Shown: positions 42,700 to 60,520 of the stretch, in pieces
Position numbering within the stretch: position 1 is the first letter of the stretch
Layout: each line of letters begins with the position of its first letter
Source of the DNA: Morinoia aosen
Taxonomy: Eukaryota > Arthropoda > Malacostraca > Amphipoda > Talitridae
Length of the DNA stretch: 64,000 bases
Reading direction: 5' to 3'
NCBI GenBank assembly: GCA_030386875.1
Contig: CM059556.1
Coordinates: 35,318,964-35,382,963, forward strand
Translations under genes and position numbers: made by a program
Notes under the pieces: model-generated
What the model was told of the DNA's origin: nothing
Database searches by the model: none
The model's input: the letters and a program-made list of their open reading frames with translations, nothing else

Positions 42700-45428
42700 T
42701 TCGTTCCCACAGCCCCGCTGCTGACTGCTGCATTCCCACAGCCCCGCTGCTTAGTACTGCATTCCCACAGCCCCGCTGCTGACTGCTGCATTCCCACAGC
42801 CCCGCTGCTTAGTACTGCATTCCCACAGCCCCGCTGCTGACTGCTGCATTCCCACAGCCCCGCTGCTAAATTCTGCATTCCCACAGCCCCGCTGCTGACT
42901 ACTGCATTCCCACAGCCCCGCTGCTGACTACTGCATTCCCACAGCCCCGCTGTTGACTGCTGCATTCCCACAGCCCCGCTGCTAAATTCTGCATTCCCAC
43001 AGCCCCGCTGCTGACTACTGCATTCCCACAGCCCCGCTGCTGACTACTGCATTCCCACAGCCCCGCTGCTGACTGCTGCATTCCCACAGCCCCGCTGCTT
43101 AATACTGCATTCCAAAAGCCCTGCTGCTGACTGCTGCATTCCCACAGCCCCGCTGCTGACTGCAGCATTCCCACAGCCCCGCTGCTGACTGCTGCATTCC
43201 CACAGCCCCGCTGCTGACTGCTGCATTCCCACAGCCCCGCTGCTAAATACTGCATTCCCACAGCCCCGCTGCTGACTGCTGCATTCCCACAGCCCCGCTG
43301 CTAAATACTGCATTCCCACAGCCCCGCTGCTGACTGCTGCATTCCCACAGCCCCGCTGCTAAATACTGCATTCCCACAGCCCCGCTGCTGACTGCTGCAT
43401 TCCCACAGCTCCGCTGCTGACTGCTGAATTCCCACTACTCCGCTGCTGACTACTGCATTCCCACAACCCTGCTGCTGAATGCTGCATTCCCACAACCCCG
43501 CTGCTGACTGCTGCATTCCCACAACCCTGCTGCTGAGTGCTGCATTCCCACAACCCTGCTGCTGAATGCTGCATTCCCACAGCCCCGCTGCTGAATGCTG
43601 CATTCCCACACCCCCGCTGCTGACTGCTGCATTCCCACAGCCCCGCTGCTGACTGCTGTATTCCCACTACTCCGCTGCTGACTACTGCATTCCCACAACC
43701 CTGCTGCTGAATGCTGCATTCCCACAACCCTGCTGCTGAATGCTGCATTCCCACAGCCCCGCTGCTGACTGCTGCATTCCCACAGCCCCGTTGCTGAGTG
43801 CTGTATTCCCACAACTCCGCTGCTAAATACTGCATTCCCGCAGCCCCGCTGCTGACTGCTGCATTCCCACAACCCTGCTGCTGAATGCTGCATTCCCACA
43901 GCCCCGCTGCTGACTGCTGCATTCCCACAGCCCCGCTGCTGACTGCTGTATTCCCACTACTCCGCTGCTAAATACTGCATTCCCGCAGCCCCGCTGCTGA
44001 CTGCTGCATTCCCACAACCCTGCTGCTGAATGCTGCATTCCCACAACCCTGCTGCTGAATGCTGCATTCCCACAGCCCCGCTGCTGACTGCTGCATTCCC
44101 ACAGCCCCGTTGCTGAGTGCTGTATTCCCACAACTCCGCTGCTAAATACTGCATTCCCGCAGCCCCGCTGCTGACTGCTGCATTCCCACAACCCTGCTGC
44201 TGAATGCTGCATTCCCACAACCCTGCTGCTGAATGCTGCATTCCCACAGCCCCGCTGCTGACTGCAGCATTCCCACAGCCCCGCTGCTGACTGCAGCATT
44301 CCCACAGCCCCGCTGCTGACTGCAGCATTCCCACAGCCCCGCTGCTGACTGCTGCATTCCCACAGCCCCGCTGCTGACTGCTGCATTCCCACAGCCCCGC
44401 TGCTAAATACTGCATTCCCACAGCACTGCTGCTGACTGCTGCATTCCCACAGCCCCGCTGCTAAATACTGCATTCCCACAGCACTGCTGCTGACTGCTGC
44501 ATTCCCACAGCCCCGCTGCTAAATACTGCATTCCAAAAGCCCCGCTGCTGACTGCAGCATTCCCACAGCCCCGCTGCTGACTGCTGCATTCCCACAGCCC
44601 CGCTGCTGACTGCTGCATTCCCACAGCCCCGCTGCTGACTGCAGCATTCCCACAGCCCCGCTGCTGACTGCTGCATTCCCACAGCCCCGCTGCTGACTGC
44701 AGCATTCCCACAGCCCCGCTGCTGACTGCTGCATTCCCACAGCCCCGCTGCTGACTGCTGCATTCCCACAGCCCCGCTGCTAAATACTGCATTCCCACAG
44801 CACTGCTGCTGACTGCTGCATTCCCACAGCACTGCTGCTGACTGCTGCATTCCCACAGCCCCGCTGCTAAATACTGCATTCCCACAGCCCCGCTGCTAAA
44901 TACTGCATTCCAAAAGCCCCGCTGCTGACTGCAGCATTCCCACAGCCCCGCTGCTGACTGCTGCATTCCCACAGCCCCGCTGCTGACTGCAGCATTCCCA
45001 CAGCCCCGCTGCTGACTGCTGCATTCCCACAGCCCCGCTGCTGACTGCTGCATTCCCACAGCCCCGCTGCTAAATACTGCATTCCCACAGCACTGCTGCT
45101 GACTGCTGCATTCCCACAGCCCCGCTGCTAAATACTGCATTCCCACAGCCCCGCTGCTAAATACTGCATTCCCACAGCACTGCTGCTGACTGCTGCATTC
45201 CCACAGCCCCGCTGCTAAATACTGCATTCCCACAGCCCCGCTGCTGACTGCAGCATTCCCACAGCCCCGCTGCTGACTGCTGCATTCCCACAGCCCCGCT
45301 GCTAAATACTGCATTCCCACAGCCCCGCTGCTAAATACTGCATTCCCACAGCACTGCTGCTGACTGCTGCATTCCCACAGCCCCGCTGCTAAATACTGCA
45401 TTCCAAAAGCCCCGCTGCTGACTGCTGC
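42700..45428 (+). repeat. Minisatellite, 29-bp unit, about 94 copies (largest array)
   Basis: Unit contains CCCACAGCCCCGCTGCTGAC and TGCTGCATT, with variants CTAAATACTG, ACTGCAG, CAACCCTG and CAGCACTG spread in patches. On the plus strand each unit has TGCATTCCCACAG, a good 3' splice-site match. Frames rotate every unit, so long open frames here are not proteins. Confidence 0.93.
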
Positions 45429-45583
45429 AGCAACAGGATCAATTTTTGATGGACGTTAGAACGCCAAAGAGCAACAATAAGGAGATGCAAGCTCAGTTCG
45501 AAAATCTCAAAACCGTTTGCGAGAAACTGCGAAGTTTTCACTCATGGAAAACTGAAAAGCTCCTCAGACAAAAAAGAAATTAA
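45429..45583 (+). CDS. Possible short terminal exon next to the 29-bp array
   Basis: After the array's last CTGCTGCAG, a frame reads QQDQFLMDVRTPKSNNKEMQ then AQFENLKTVCEKLRSFHSWK, TEKLLRQKRN and TAA, with AATAAA about 10 bases later. It looks like a short helical segment. There is no supporting upstream exon, so it may be chance or a relic. Confidence 0.22.
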
Positions 45584-45764
45584 GAAATAAATAAAACCTC
45601 GCTTGAAAGATCTGTAGGTAAGAAAAGCTGGAAAGATCCCTGAAAAAGAGAGACGAGAAGGAGCCATGATCAAAGAGCGCTGAATGGAACCCGACAAGTG
45701 CAAGATGGATATCCGGGTAAGGAAAGCTGAACGGATATCCAGGTAAGGAGAACTGAAAGAATTC

Positions 45765-46905
45765 TTAGACATGGTGAGCAGAAAGAACCCTCAGACATGG
45801 TGAGCAGAAAGAACCCTTAGACATGGTGAGCAGAAAGAACCCTCAGACATAGTGAGCAGAAAGAATCCTCAGACATGGTGAACAGAAAGAACCCTTAGAC
45901 ATGGTGAGCAGAAAGAACCCTCAGACATAGTGAGCAGAAAGAATCCTCAGACATGGTGAACAGAAAGAACCCTTAGACATGGTGAGCTAAAAGAATTCTT
46001 AGACATGGTGAGCAGAAAGTACCCTTAGACATGGTGAGCTAAAAGAATTCTTAGACATGGTGAGCAGAAAGAACCCTCAGACATGGTGAGCAGAAAGAAC
46101 CCTTAGACATGGTGAGCAGAAAGAACCTTCAGACATAGTGAGCAGAAAGAATCCTCAGACATGGTGAACTAAAAGAATTCTTAGACATGGTGAGCAGAAA
46201 GAACCCTCAGACATGGTGAGCAGAAAGAACCCTTAGACATGGTGAGCAGAAAGAACCCTCAGACATAGTGAGCAGAAAGAATCCTCAGACATGGTGAACA
46301 GAAAGAACCCTTAGACATGGTGAGCAGAAAGAACCCTCAGACATAGTGAGCAGAAAGAATCCTCAGACATGGTGAACAGAAAGAACCCTTAGACATGGTG
46401 AGCTAAAAGAATTCTTAGACATGGTGAGCAGAAAGTACCTTTAGACATGGTGAGCTAAAAGAATTCTTAGACATGGTGAGCAAAAAGAACCCTCAGACAT
46501 GGTGAGCAGAAAGAACCCTTAGACATGGTGAACTAAAAGAATTCTTAGACATGGTGAGCAGAAAGAACCCTCAGACATGGTGAGCAGAAAGAACCCTTAG
46601 ACATGGTGAGCAGAAAGAACCCTCAGACATAGTGAGCAGAAAGAATCCTCAGACATGGTGAACAGAAAGAACCCTTAGACATGGTGAGCAGAAAGAACCC
46701 TCAGACATAGTGAGCAGAAAGAATCCTCAGACATGGTGAACAGAAAGAACCCTTAGACATGGTGAGCTAAAAGAATTCTTAGACATGGTGAGCAGAAAGT
46801 ACCCTTAGACATGGTGAGCTAAAAGAATTCTTAGACATGTTGAGTTGAAAGAATCCTTACACATGGTGAGCAGAAAAAATCGTTAGACATAGTGAGCAGA
46901 AAGGC
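45765..46905 (+). repeat. Minisatellite, 26-bp unit, about 43 copies, with higher-order blocks
   Basis: Unit contains AGACATGGTGAGCAGAAAGA plus ACCCTC or ACCCTT. Variants (ATAGTGAGC, GGTGAACAG, GCTAAAAGAATTC) recur in the same order in blocks, so several-unit segments have been copied together. ATG|GTGAGC recurs as a donor-like string. Confidence 0.9.
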
Positions 46906-53665: not shown

Positions 53666-53869
53666 CTCAGGCAATAAGATACTTGAAATAAATGTCAGAG
53701 ATTCAGGCATTTGGATAAGATGAAGGCAATTACACGACATATCTGAATCCACAAACAACTTAGGATGCTTCCAACCGAAGGTAGCACATCTAAACCACAA
53801 CTCGCATCAACATGGAACTCGTTCGTGTAAAACTGGTGAATCACGAAGCTGGTGACCGAGACACTCGTG

Positions 53870-54384
53870 TTCGAGACACGCGTGCGAGAAACTCGTGTTC
53901 GAGACACACAAGTGATCGAGACACACTCGTGTTCGAGACACACAAGTGACCGAGACACACAAGTGACCGAGACACTCGTGTTCGAGACACACAAGTGACC
54001 GAGACACAGGTGATCGAGACACAGGTGATCGAGACACAGGTGATCGAGACACAGGTGATCGAGACACAGGTGATCGAGACACAGGTGATCGAGACACAGG
54101 TGATCGAGACACAGGTGATCGAGACACAGGTGATCGAGACACAGGTGATCGAGACACAGGTGATCGAGACAGGTGATCGAGACACAGGTGATCGAGACAC
54201 AGGTGATCGAGACACAGGTGATCGAGACACAGGTGATCGAGACACAGGTGATCGAGACACAGGTGATCGAGACACAGGTGATCGAGACACAGGTGATCGA
54301 GACACAGGTGATCGAGACACAGGTGATCGAGACACAGGTGATCGAGACACAAGCGATCGAGACACAAGTGATCGAGACACCCTA
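53870..54384 (+). repeat. Minisatellite, 15-bp unit, about 30 copies, in the predicted 3' UTR of gene B
   Basis: Unit GAGACACAGGTGATC; left edge has GTGTTC variants. It starts about 20 bases past the minus-strand stop codon. Confidence 0.9.
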
Positions 54385-54403: not shown

Positions 54404-54537
54404 TTAGGGCTGGAGCAAGTCGGAGTCCGTGGACCCCCTCTGGGGGGCGAGCAGGTCGGCGCCCCCCGCGTCCGCGTACGCCCCCCCGCTCTGGTAGTTG
54501 AGGGGGCGTGTTGCACCCCCACCGCTCAGCCCCCCGT
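54404..54537 (-). CDS. M6PR: M6PR-like last exon with acidic-dileucine sorting signal and stop
   Basis: Acceptor CCCCCACCCAG; the exon starts with two bases that complete the phase-1 codon left by the 57-kb exon, then reads GGLSGGGATRPLNYQ...AYADAGGADLLAP...GSTDSDLLQP and TAA. The C-terminal D-S-D-L-L fits the DXXLL motif that GGA adaptors bind in mannose-6-phosphate receptors. The glycine-rich linker is not conserved in vertebrates. The exon is much more GC-rich than its surroundings. About 20 bases after the stop a 15-bp minisatellite begins, so it should lie in the 3' UTR. No polyadenylation signal was assigned. Confidence 0.82.
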
Positions 54538-55794
54538 CTGGGTGGGGGTAGTGATATTAGCAGTGTAGTGCGCTCAGGAAATGGTGAAAGTTTGTCTCGT
54601 AACTATACTATATGAATAATTATAAAGATTAATTGTTTTAAATAATAGATAATTCGAGAGAAAATACGAACTTGAGAAGAGATAAAAATAAAATAATTAT
54701 ATATAACTATGGGAAATATGCTCACAATGGTGTTAATCGAGCATAGAAAATTCATGGAAAAATAATTATTCGCAAGAGTATGATATAAAAAAACAATCAT
54801 ACTTAAGCATAGAAAATAACACGAAAATGTGACTACACTTATGTACAGAGAATAATTTGTAAATTGAAGAGACGCATAAAATACAGCAATAATAATGTAT
54901 ACCTAGGTATATGAAATGATCTGAAAATTGACGATGCTTAAACACTGGAAGTTCAACAGAAAAATTATTGTGTGTGAGCGTTGTAGATGATTTTAAAATC
55001 AATGATACACAAATCATAGAAACTGTCAGAGGCAAATTTCAACACTACCCATAGGTAACAAAGAAAAAAGACTCAGAGAACATCAAGGTTCGATAATATT
55101 AATTACGGAAATAATACCAATGTGTTCATAATATTGCCCATAATGCTGAGAAGTATTTCAATGAAAGTGAATTCGATGTTGATTCCGATACCAACCATGA
55201 CAACATTGAGTGCGATTTCATAGATACAATACTGAGTTAAATCTAAAACTTTAAAATTAAAAGGAAGAATCAAAATTTGAAAATTTAAATGATTGAAGTA
55301 CATTTTTGACGGCGCTGGTGGCGATTTTCTCTGTTGGGTATAGGGGAAAAATTCCAAGCATAATACCCCAATCTAACCAAGGTGTCTGAAATGGGTACCG
55401 GTCTTGACCGGGGGAAAGCGTCATGGCGTCCTGGCGTTAGTTATAAGGCATTTGAAAATCCAATGTACAAGGTGATATGTATCAGGCTTGATTGGAAATA
55501 AAGCATCCGTAGATGCCTTCATTATTTTGACATCCAAAAAGGCATATTTTCACCAACGAAATTAGCATAAAATTCAATGCAAAATTTTGAAGTTTGTTGA
55601 AAATAAATAATAGACCGCTCCGAAAATATTATTGGCGATAAGTCCCAGCATTTTAGCTTCAGTAGGAAAACTTTTTAATTACTGAGAATTCTTCAAACCT
55701 CACCCAATTGTATTACTCTAAGCATTAGCTCAAATCCAACTTGAAAATAAAGATAAAGAGGAGAAAGATGTTGAAACATACAAAACACACACAC
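54538..55794. other. Intron of gene B, no further feature
   Basis: AT-rich with loose GAAAATA(A)NACNNG-type recurrences (54650-55030). Lies between the last exon's acceptor and the distal end of the 39-bp array. Confidence 0.4.
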
Positions 55795-57062
55795 AACACT
55801 CACCAGACACACGCAACACTCACCAGAGTAAGGCGCACTGCCACCAGACACACAACACTCACCAGAGTACGGCGCATTGCCCCCAGACACACAACACTCA
55901 CCAGACACACACAACACTCACCAGACACACACAACACTCACCAGACACACACAACACTCACCAGAGTACGGCGCACTGCCACCAGACACACAACACTCAC
56001 CAGAGTACGGCGCACTGCCACCAGACACACAACACTCACCAGAGTACGGCGCACTGCCACCAGACACACAACACTCACCAGAGTACGGCGCACTGCCCCC
56101 AGACACACAACACTCACCAGAGTACGGCGCACTGCCACCAGACACACAACACTCACCAGAGTACGGCGCTCTGCCCCCAGACACACAACACTCACCAGAG
56201 TACGGCGCACTGCCACCAGACACACACAACACTCACCAGAGTACGGCGCACTGCCACCAGACACACAACACTCACCAGAGTACGGCGCACTGCCCCCAGA
56301 CACACAACACTCACCAGAGTACGGCGCACTGCCCCCAGACACACAACACTCACCAGAGTACGGCGCACTGCCCCCAGACACACAACACTCACCAGAGTAC
56401 GGCGCACTGCCCCCAGACACACAACACTCACCAGAGTACGGCGCACTGCCACCAGACACACAACACTCACCAGAGTACGGCGCACTGCCCCCAGACACAC
56501 AACACTCACCAGAGTACGGCGCACTGCCACCAGACACACAACACTCACCAGAGTACGGCGCTCTGCCCCCAGACACACAACACTCACCAGAGTACGGCGC
56601 ACTGCCACCAGACACACACAACACTCACCAGAGTACGGCGCACTGCCCCCAGACACACAACACTCACCAGAGTACGGCGCACTGCCACCAGACACACAAC
56701 ACTCACCAGAGTACGGCGCACTGCCCCCAGACACACACAACACTCACCAGAGTACGGCGCACTGCCCCCAGACACACAACACTCACCAGAGTACGGCGCA
56801 CTGCCACCAGACCACCAGACACACACAACACTCACCAGAATACGGCGCACTGCCACCAGACACACACAACACTCACCAGAGTACGGCGCACTGCCCCCAG
56901 ACACACAACACTCACCAGAGTACGGCGCACTGCCACCAGACACACACAACACTCACCAGAGTACGGCGCACTGCCACCAGACACACACAACACTCACCAG
57001 AGTACGGCGCACTGCCACCAGACACACAACACCCACCAGAGTACGGCGCACTGCCACCAGAG
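55795..57062 (+). repeat. Minisatellite, 39-bp unit, about 30 copies, made from an exon/intron junction
   Basis: Unit contains CACTCACCAGAGTACGGCGC and ACTGCC(A/C)CCAGACA. Read on the minus strand each unit is the end of the M6PR-like tail exon (GGCAGTGCGCCGTACTCTG) followed by GTGAGTGTTGT. Some units are 41 bp (extra CA); the distal end has short 20-bp partial units. Confidence 0.93.
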
Positions 57063-57133
57063 ACAGAAGTGTAGTCATCGAAGTTGTTGTCCCCGAAGTG
57101 TTTGTCGCAGCGGCACAGCACTCCGGTACAGTC
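57037..57133 (-). CDS. M6PR: M6PR-like exon: Cys-rich cytosolic tail
   Basis: 97 nt, phase 0 in, phase 1 out; acceptor ACGTGCAG. It reads DCTGVLCRCDKHFGDNNFDD then YTSVSGGSAPYS. The DC...CRC start matches the DGC...CR segment of the family's tail, where paired cysteines are palmitoylation sites in vertebrates (inferred here). The nearest donor is TACTCTG|GTGGGT. The last ~25 coding bases and the donor form the unit of the adjoining 39-bp array, so the second donor 39 bp on (GTGAGT) is a closer match to consensus and would add 13 residues in frame. Confidence 0.82.
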
Positions 57134-58007: not shown

Positions 58008-58268
58008 CGCAATGGCATTGCCAGTCCTGAACCAGAAGAGCTTGTTGGGGAGCTGGTCAATGCCCTTGGCGCCCTTCACGAAGCGCATGTAGGCGACCCC
58101 CAGCAGGAGGTAGGTGGCGAACAGCACCGACACGACGATGAGAAACACCGAGAAGCCCCCCAGGCCCGAGGACGGGCGTGGGGCGCTGCAGGCCAGGGAG
58201 TGTGAAGTCGAGAACGAGTTGAAGCACCCGAGGCCGGGCACTGGGTCCGACTTGAGCGTTGGGGAGGG
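58008..58268 (-). CDS. M6PR: M6PR-like exon: end of MRH domain, transmembrane helix, juxtamembrane tail
   Basis: 261 nt, exactly 87 codons, phase 0 to 0, acceptor ATTATTACAG and donor GCG|GTGAGC. The first part holds the last lectin cysteines (LGCFNSF, then SHSLACSAP). A hydrophobic run GGFSVFLIVVSVLFATYLLL follows as the single transmembrane helix. Next comes GVAYMRFVKGAKGIDQLP and KLFWFRTGNAIA, which aligns with the conserved cytosolic start of the vertebrate receptor tail (R-x-V-x-G-A-K-G-x-x-Q-x-P, then FW). Codon choice is GC-rich compared with the surrounding AT-rich intron. This is the diagnostic exon of the gene. Confidence 0.88.
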
Positions 58269-58396: not shown

Positions 58397-59157
58397 CGTG
58401 CACTGCCCGTCAAAAATGACGGGATTCATTACCTTTCTTGAACAAATTTTCCAGATGTGGATGACAAACAAATATTTCCACCCTAACTGTACCCGTGATA
58501 AATATCCTTGTACTCGTGCACTGGTGAAACTCGCATCACAGATACGGTCATTATAACTATCCTTATGAGCGTGACAGAGAAATGGGAAAAGCGGACTCCA
58601 AACATATAAACCAAGGGTATTATTAGGTAGTAGTAGCTCCTGTGGAAATTCCTTTGTTGCTTTGTTGGCTGGGTGTCACCGTCCAAGCCCTGCTTTCGGC
58701 AATTAAACAGGGCAAAATGCAGCATGCTGCTTCAGGAAAGAAGATAGGGCAAAATTTTAAATTACCACACATGATGTTGTGGATGCGACTTGTGAGTAAA
58801 AGAGAGCCAGGAACTGCATCAGCAGACATGTCAAAGTGCCCCACGTTTCTAAATTGGGCAGTGCAATAATCCAATATTTTGACAGAATCTTACCAAATAA
58901 CACCCATGGTGTGTTAATTTATTTTCATATTTATATATTGGTTTGCTGTCTGCTTTTTAAGAAACAGATCCTTTGATTTGATTTCAAGGATGCTTAATGA
59001 ACGTATCTGTGATACGAGTTTCACCAGTGTACAAGTACAAGAATATTTTAATGGCGTTCACTATTAGGATGGATATATTTGTTTGTCATCCACATCTGGA
59101 AAACTTGTGTAAAGAAAATATAGAATCCCGTCATTTTTTGACGGGCCCTGTACACTA
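58397..59157. mobile_element. TIR element inside the M6PR-like intron
   Basis: Inverted arms of about 170-200 bp surround ~380 bp. Both ends carry a palindrome, CCCGTCAAAAATGACGGG, and both arms share blocks such as CCAGATGTGGATGACAAACA and TGGTGAAACTCG. The centre has an open frame on each strand with no recognisable transposase. Partial copies are at about 2918-3055 and 36290-36375. Confidence 0.6.
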
Positions 59158-60019: not shown

Positions 60020-60155
60020 CCCTTGCACGTCGTAGTCGCAGGTGACGAGAAGACGAGCGGTGCGCGGTCGGCTGGCGCAGGCGTCAGCGGCGGAGTAGTT
60101 CGTGCTGCTCAGCCACACCACCTCCACCCAGTCCGCTGTGGGCACCGTGGCGGCT
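60020..60155 (-). CDS. M6PR: M6PR-like exon: MRH lectin domain
   Basis: Frame reads ...TVPTADWVEVVWLSSTNYS, then AADACASRPRTARLLVTCDY, then DVQG. This has the MRH pattern: Tyr, a Cys-containing loop, an R-x-T strand and a TCD strand. In the family this part of the fold forms the sugar pocket and its disulfides. The donor is CAAGGG|GTACGT (phase 0), which matches the next exon. The 5' edge is uncertain: CCCCAG (exon start 60155) or CCCACAG (exon start 60135) could be the acceptor. Tandem arrays sit on both sides; their units repeat GGTACGT on the donor side and CCCCAG on the acceptor side. Confidence 0.75.
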
Positions 60156-60520
60156 CTGGGGCTTTGTGTGTACAGACTCGAGCGCTTTGCTGCTCGGGCA
60201 CACTGACTGTGCAGCTCTGGGGCTTTGTGTGTGCACACTCGAGCGCTTTGTTGCTCAGGCACACTGACTGCGCAGCTCTGGGGCTTTGTATGTACACACT
60301 TGAGTGCTTTGTTGCTCTGGCACAGTGACTGTGCAGCTCTGGGGCTTTGTTTGTACAGACTTGAGTGCTTTTTTGCTCAGGCACACTGACTGTGCAGCTC
60401 TGGGGCTTTGTGTGTCCAGACTTGAGTGCTTTGTTGTTCAGGCACACTGACTGTGCAGCTCTGGGGCTTTGTGTGTACAGACTTGAGTGTTTTGTTGCTC
60501 AGGCACACTGAGCTAATCTC
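60140..60520 (+). repeat. Minisatellite, 60-bp unit, about 6 copies, at the MRH exon acceptor
   Basis: Unit contains GCACACTGACTGTGCAGCTC, TGGGGCTTTGTGTGTACAGA and TTGAGTGCTTTGTTGCTCAG. On the minus strand each has AAAGCCCCAGAGC, the likely acceptor of the exon. Confidence 0.85.

What the first reader, a model, noticed from the sequence alone, without database searches (positions are those of the whole stretch)
55795..57133. A minisatellite built from an exon/intron junction gives the receptor tail exon a ladder of 5' splice sites
Seen: the 39-bp unit on the minus strand is the last ~25 coding bases of the M6PR-like tail exon plus the start of its intron, so each of about 30 copies has TACTCTG|GTGAGT. 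The first donor (57037) is GTGGGT; the second (56998), 39 bp on, is GTGAGT, closer to consensus and in phase, adding 13 residues (GGCCVSGGSAPYS). The third is 41 bp further and shifts frame. Inference: the array could produce tail-length isoforms between the transmembrane helix and the DXXLL signal, or act as a splicing decoy, and copy number could vary between individuals.
Basis: partly seen in the sequence, partly recalled or inferred. Interest (0 to 1): 0.88.

Follow-up and report, generated by a model that had tools for sequence, protein, structure and literature searches.

The report
Splice-junction minisatellite in a receptor gene
In an amphipod crustacean's mannose-6-phosphate receptor gene, the end of one exon and the start of its intron are copied about thirty times in a row, a kind of repeat already known from amphioxus; similar copies at other exons sampled in this genome make it a good place to ask how cells choose the right splice site.

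Summary
On the minus strand, the last 25 coding bases of an M6PR tail exon plus 14 intron bases form a 39/41-bp array with 30 junction copies; 4 more donors sit in 20-bp half-units, giving 34 TCTG|GTGRGT sites (57036 to 55803). The junction 23-mer (up to 2 mismatches) was found 30 times in the 1.99-Gb genome, all here. The gene is an amphipod cation-dependent M6PR. Hyalella's tail agrees with the donor-1 form to within one residue, so the exon looks older than the array.

The isoform ladder is mostly not supported: 2 of 34 donors keep the DXXLL signal, 29 give NMD-type stops, 3 give truncated tails. Most likely this is a tolerated "mirage", the exon/intron-boundary minisatellite described in amphioxus. 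Human IFI6 is a precedent for using a few such donors.

Beyond the finding: of 40 Ras-family exon pieces from the same genome, 5 clearly carry tandemly copied splice junctions, and 2 more do less certainly. In the donor cases no native site outscores its best copy. No transcripts, reads, second haplotype or second family were available.

The parts
60020..60135 (-). M6PR exon A (luminal domain piece, DWVEVVWLSS...DYDVQG)
   Evidence: joins in phase with exons B-D; protein match E 2.2e-4
58008..58268 (-). M6PR exon B (transmembrane helix and start of the tail)
   Evidence: protein match E 7.4e-30; Pfam PF02157 match
57037..57133 (-). M6PR exon C (tail), ending at native donor CTG|GTGGGT
   Evidence: protein match E 4.2e-10
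55787..57065 (-). Junction minisatellite: 39/41-bp units of 25 exonic + 14 intronic bases, 30 full junction copies and 20-bp half-units; 34 TCTG|GTGRGT donors from 57036 down to 55803
   Evidence: private to this place by the 23-mer pattern
56998..57036 (-). Segment added to exon C if donor 2 is used (13 residues GGCCVSGGSAPYS)
   Evidence: the frame allows it, no RNA data
54404..54537 (-). M6PR exon D (last exon) with the DSDLLQP sorting signal and stop
   Evidence: aligned to the Hyalella C-terminus DSELLQP

Best explanation
The array is a mirage-type minisatellite. A tandem duplication spanning the exon C/intron junction of an amphipod CD-M6PR gene grew, by slippage or unequal exchange, to 30 junction copies. 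Shown: the copies come from this junction alone, the exonic part has a counterpart in Hyalella, and 32 of 34 donors would remove the sorting signal. Inferred: the native donor, transcribed first and nearest the 97-nt exon, is chosen in most transcripts by exon definition or position; the copies leave with the intron; donor 2 may leak and give a tail 13 residues longer; use of donors 6-34 would be cleared by nonsense-mediated decay. The array is tolerated rather than selected, and the same tolerance shows at other exons of this genome.
For: 34 donors, 30 with the exonic part; 30 of 30 genome matches of the junction 23-mer lie here. Hyalella reads TSVSGASAAYAGDGAL where this gene reads TSVSGGSAPYSDGGL. 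Outcome per donor: 2 full, 3 truncated, 29 NMD-type. Minisatellites cover 24.7% of the window and 16.5% of sixteen 10-kb stretches of C1. In 40 Ras-family exon pieces, 5 clear and 2 less certain junction arrays; array coverage 0.3% in exon interiors, 11.5% at donor ends, 5.1% at acceptor ends, 5.6-14.7% in nearby intron. In L046 copies 3-5 lost the Asn of VGNKK that the exon-proximal copy keeps. Amphioxus mirages are reported not to disturb splicing (PMC3087553, passages; PMC3902484, passage).
Against: No transcript was seen. The native donor is the weakest of the 34 by the rough matrix, so a strength-driven choice would favour the copies. IFI6 shows that downstream repeat donors can be used (PMC4526556, passage). 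The Hyalella comparison rests on one relative and its exon border is unknown. In L046 copy 2 keeps VGNKK too.
Confidence: 0.7

Rival explanations
1. Two tail-length isoforms: donors 1 and 2 are both used at steady levels, giving receptors that differ by 13 residues (with two extra cysteines) between the membrane and DXXLL.
For: Donor 2 is in phase and scores above donor 1. In IFI6 two downstream repeat units serve as donors (PMC4526556, passage).
Against: Donors 3-34 score the same as donor 2 but are unproductive, so strength-driven use would mostly make faulty RNA; Hyalella agrees with the donor-1 form to within one residue. No RNA data.
Confidence: 0.15
2. Decoy or dimmer: the copies bind U1 or are spliced to faulty RNA that is destroyed, so copy number sets the amount of receptor.
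For: 29 of 34 donors give NMD-type stops and 33 of 34 score above the native donor.
Against: Similar arrays lie at exons of other genes and amphioxus mirages are reported as silent; nothing ties copy number to expression.
Confidence: 0.1
3. The array length is an assembly artefact.
For: Tandem arrays are error-prone in assemblies (general knowledge); no reads were available.
Against: The 33 donor-to-donor segments fall into 12 types in irregular order, unlike simple stutter; junction arrays recur at other loci of the assembly.
Confidence: 0.05

Closest known systems
Amphioxus 'mirages' (Adh3, globins BflGb6 and BflGb9, TnC, PGBD5)
   Same: Minisatellite-like tandem copies of an exon/intron boundary, at donors or acceptors, many with splice signals (PMC3087553, passages; PMC3902484, passage).
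   Different: A crustacean, not a cephalochordate; 30 junction copies here against 6 and 3 units in the two BflGb6 haplotypes; splicing and length instability were examined there and not here.
Human IFI6 (6-16) minisatellite with multiple splice donors (Turri et al. 1995; not held, known from citing papers)
   Same: A minisatellite at an exon end supplies downstream donors (PMC4526556, passage).
   Different: In IFI6 two downstream units are used and three mRNAs are made; here no RNA is known and only one downstream donor is in frame.
Intron gain by tandem duplication across a boundary (potato RdRp; human tandem repeats at exon-intron boundaries)
   Same: Tandem copying of sequence across an intron/exon boundary (PMC4974935, passages; PMC2812944, passages).
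   Different: No new intron is seen here.

Membership tests
Mirage (exon/intron-boundary minisatellite) | Tandem units that contain the boundary, exonic and intronic part together | tested here: met
   25 exonic + 14 intronic bases per 39-bp unit, 30 copies
Mirage (exon/intron-boundary minisatellite) | Regular splicing not disturbed by the copies | not testable with these tools
   no transcripts at hand; only indirect support from the frame and from Hyalella
Mirage (exon/intron-boundary minisatellite) | Length instability between haplotypes (and somatic at Adh3) | not testable with these tools
   one haploid assembly, no reads
Minisatellite supplying used splice donors (IFI6 type) | Downstream repeat donors used in mRNA | not testable with these tools
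   donor 2 is permitted by frame; use unknown
Cation-dependent M6PR | Match to the family profile and to annotated members | tested here: met
   PF02157 E 2.5e-20, over its cut-off; Hyalella CD-M6PR 59%. ATG27 also matches, below its cut-off
Cation-dependent M6PR | C-terminal DXXLL sorting signal | tested here: met
   DSDLLQP here, DSELLQP in Hyalella; the motif's role is recalled
Cation-dependent M6PR | Binds mannose 6-phosphate | not tested
   the N-terminal exons were not assembled; one lies beyond the window

The most novel reading that the evidence does not exclude
Splice-junction arrays are commonplace in this amphipod genome: tandem duplication ignores exon borders, and the spliceosome there reliably uses the exon-proximal copy although equal or stronger near-identical sites follow within tens of bases. 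Five to seven of 40 sampled Ras-family exon pieces carry such arrays, at donors and at acceptors. If transcripts confirm it, the genome is a large natural experiment on position against strength in splice-site choice, and a reservoir for new introns.
Probability: 0.5. Interest if true: 0.72.

Novelty: new member of a known kind. Interest (0 to 1): 0.5.

Why it matters
Junction-spanning minisatellites were named in amphioxus; the listings of my searches showed no crustacean case (open-licence papers only, and the lists were capped). A 30-copy example, with five clear ones among 40 exon pieces of the same genome, suggests that the phenomenon is not private to cephalochordates and may follow from a high minisatellite load. 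Each array is a series of near-identical splice sites at set distances from one exon, so ordinary RNA-seq of this animal could test how position weighs against strength. It also warns that gene models in such genomes may be wrong at repeated junctions.

Tried and rejected
Exon born from the array: rejected as less likely, because Hyalella has the same peptide at this place (one relative only). Dispersed family: not found for the junction 23-mer. Extra M6PR copies: the protein search gave 5 matches, 4 of them exons of this gene and one weak match on C8 at E 3.71. Enrichment of arrays at junctions: not found. Coverage at donor ends is like that of introns, and at acceptor ends lower, so I claim tolerance and not attraction. 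RNA folding of two stretches of units gave nothing I could interpret. Solved structures: 0 matches. A second survey family was never obtained: PF00069 and PF00004 did not complete once each, PF00227 four times.

Rows dropped: one search listed 128 Ras matches (150 of 532 candidates scored). Going down the list I reached rank 53 and fetched 40, leaving out 9 with stops inside, 3 that cover nearly the whole domain in one frame, and 1 near-identical duplicate. Several of the 40 pieces are exons of one gene, so they are not 40 independent genes; the five clear cases lie on five different contigs. Exon ends are HMM match ends; in L065 the match overshoots its donor. Clear: L046, L053, L061, L071, L072. 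Uncertain: L058 (weak donor, 2.86) and L065 (second junction copy 380 bp on). L040 has an array that only abuts the exon and is not counted.

Full report
Setting. The window is C1:35318964-35382963 of a 1.99-Gb assembly in 29 contigs. The minus-strand gene at 60.1-54.4 kb is a cation-dependent mannose-6-phosphate receptor. Four exons join in phase into a 201-residue C-terminal part that matches Pfam Man-6-P_recep at E 2.5e-20. The protein search gave two matches, both amphipods: Hyalella azteca (59% identity over the whole query) and Trinorchestia longiramus (75% over 62%). A further exon lies just beyond the window end (E 0.0015). The organism is therefore an amphipod, probably talitroid (inference). 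The protein search of the genome gave 5 matches, 4 in this gene and one weak one at E 3.71.

The array. Exon C (57133-57037) encodes DCTGVLCRCDKHFGDNNFDDYTSVSGGSAPYS and ends at CTG|GTGGGT. From its last 25 bases on, the sequence repeats with a 39-bp unit (25 exonic, 14 intronic) and 41-, 49- and 20-bp variants, down to about 55.79 kb. There are 34 donors TCTG|GTGRGT: 33 with CTG|GTGAGT and the native CTG|GTGGGT. Thirty are preceded by the exonic part. Genome-wide, the junction 23-mer with up to two mismatches was found at those 30 places only. The 33 donor-to-donor segments fall into 12 types. The unit contains TCTGGTG twice, and the 20-bp half-units near the far end are what exchange between these two boxes would leave (inference).

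Origin. Hyalella has TSVSGASAAYAGDGAL where this gene reads TSVSGGSAPYSDGGL. The exonic part of the repeat therefore seems older than the array, and the donor-1 form agrees with Hyalella to within one residue. Only one relative covers this part (the Trinorchestia model ends at exon B), and an exon border cannot be read from a protein.

Consequences of each donor. The last exon is entered in phase 1. Donors 1 and 2 give the full DXXLL tail, donor 2 with 13 extra residues. The 41-bp spacing after donor 2 shifts the frame. Donors 3-5 would give tails without DXXLL whose stop should escape NMD. The other 29 place a stop at least 50 nt before the last junction. On a rough matrix from recalled frequencies the native donor scores 7.41 and the copies 9.95; U1 duplex energies are -10.3 and -11.1 kcal/mol. 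The native site is thus the weakest of the 34, and a choice by strength alone would cost most transcripts their sorting signal. Since the reading frame looks intact, I infer that the exon-proximal site is chosen by position or exon definition. This is not shown.

Is it special? Tandem arrays of period 7 or more and at least 3 copies cover 24.7% of the window and 16.5% of sixteen 10-kb stretches of C1. I took 40 of 128 listed Ras-family exon pieces of the same genome, with up to 400 bp on each side (selection in Tried and rejected). Arrays of period 20 or more and score 100 or more cover 0.3% of exon interiors, 11.5% of the 31 bases around donor-side ends, 5.1% around acceptor-side ends, 5.6-14.7% of nearby intron and 13.9% of the C1 stretches. 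At the match end itself an array covers 5 of 40 donor-side and 2 of 40 acceptor-side ends, against 1 of 40 and 0 of 40 sixty bases inside the exon. So arrays are not enriched at junctions. They are excluded from exon interiors and seem about as frequent at donor ends as in introns.

The cases, read by eye and scored, native copy included: L046, five copies of AAG|GTTAGT (81 bp); L071, four of CAG|GTRGGY (53 bp); L053, two (112 bp); L061, four of an acceptor TTGATTGCAG or TTAATTGCAG (72 bp); L072, nine of an acceptor CAG|GC (32 bp). Less certain are L058 (three, weak donor) and L065 (a second copy of its junction 380 bp away). No native donor outscores its best copy: M6PR 7.41 vs 9.95, L053 6.7 vs 8.9, L071 7.99 vs 9.51-10.13, L046 equal, L065 the same nine bases, L058 2.86 vs 3.19 (but it outscores its other copy, 2.3). 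In L046 the exon-proximal copy and copy 2 read VGNKK while copies 3-5 read GYKK or RYKK. That Asn belongs to the NKxD motif of GTPases (recalled). This fits selection holding the exon-proximal copy.

Prior art. Tandem repeats spanning exon-intron boundaries were named mirages in amphioxus Adh3. In amphioxus globins RT-PCR suggested regular splicing, and two haplotypes of BflGb6 had 6 and 3 units (PMC3087553, passages). PGBD5 and TnC are further cases (PMC3902484, passage). In human IFI6 two downstream repeat units of a minisatellite serve as donors (PMC4526556, passage; the original, Turri et al. 1995, is not held, and its title was seen in reference lists). Tandem duplication over boundaries has been linked to new introns (PMC4974935, passages; PMC2812944, passages). 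Searches aimed at crustaceans listed no such array (listings only, two of them capped). The Trinorchestia genome paper gives 6.18% tandem repeats (PMC7062882, passages) and the passages seen there and in the Parhyale paper (PMC5111886) do not mention junctions.

Verdict. The sequence observation is right in the details that could be checked. The isoform ladder is not: one in-frame alternative exists, not thirty. The best reading is a tolerated mirage. What raises interest is the small survey. Its limits: one protein superfamily, several pieces per gene, exon ends from HMM matches, no RNA. Counting L058, 6 of 40 gives a 95% interval of 6-30%.

Noticed in passing
window 60153-60511: A 61-bp minisatellite (5.9 copies) ends 17 bases upstream (in transcript order) of the start of exon A, so a second junction of the same gene is nearly reached by an array.
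   Followed up: partly
window 53851-54380: A 15-bp minisatellite (34.9 copies) begins 23 bases after the M6PR stop codon, presumably in the 3' UTR.
   Followed up: no
window 58412-58553 and 58995-59138: Inverted repeats of 94 nt (79%) and 54 nt (91%) with about 440-540 nt between the arms, in the intron between exons A and B; looks like a transposon-type hairpin.
   Followed up: no
L046, L053, L061, L071, L072 (also L058, L065): Tandemly copied splice junctions at Ras-family exons of the same genome, at donors and acceptors.
   Followed up: yes
G000 C9:38727472 and C9:39663425; C12:41167426 and C12:41763479; C1:366484 and C1:7335160: Pairs of Ras-family exons with equal or nearly equal scores and partner exons at matching spacing, as in recent segmental duplications or retained haplotypes.
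   Followed up: no
window 42704-46903: Two long minisatellites almost back to back: 29 bp x 94.0 and 26 bp x 44.2.
   Followed up: no
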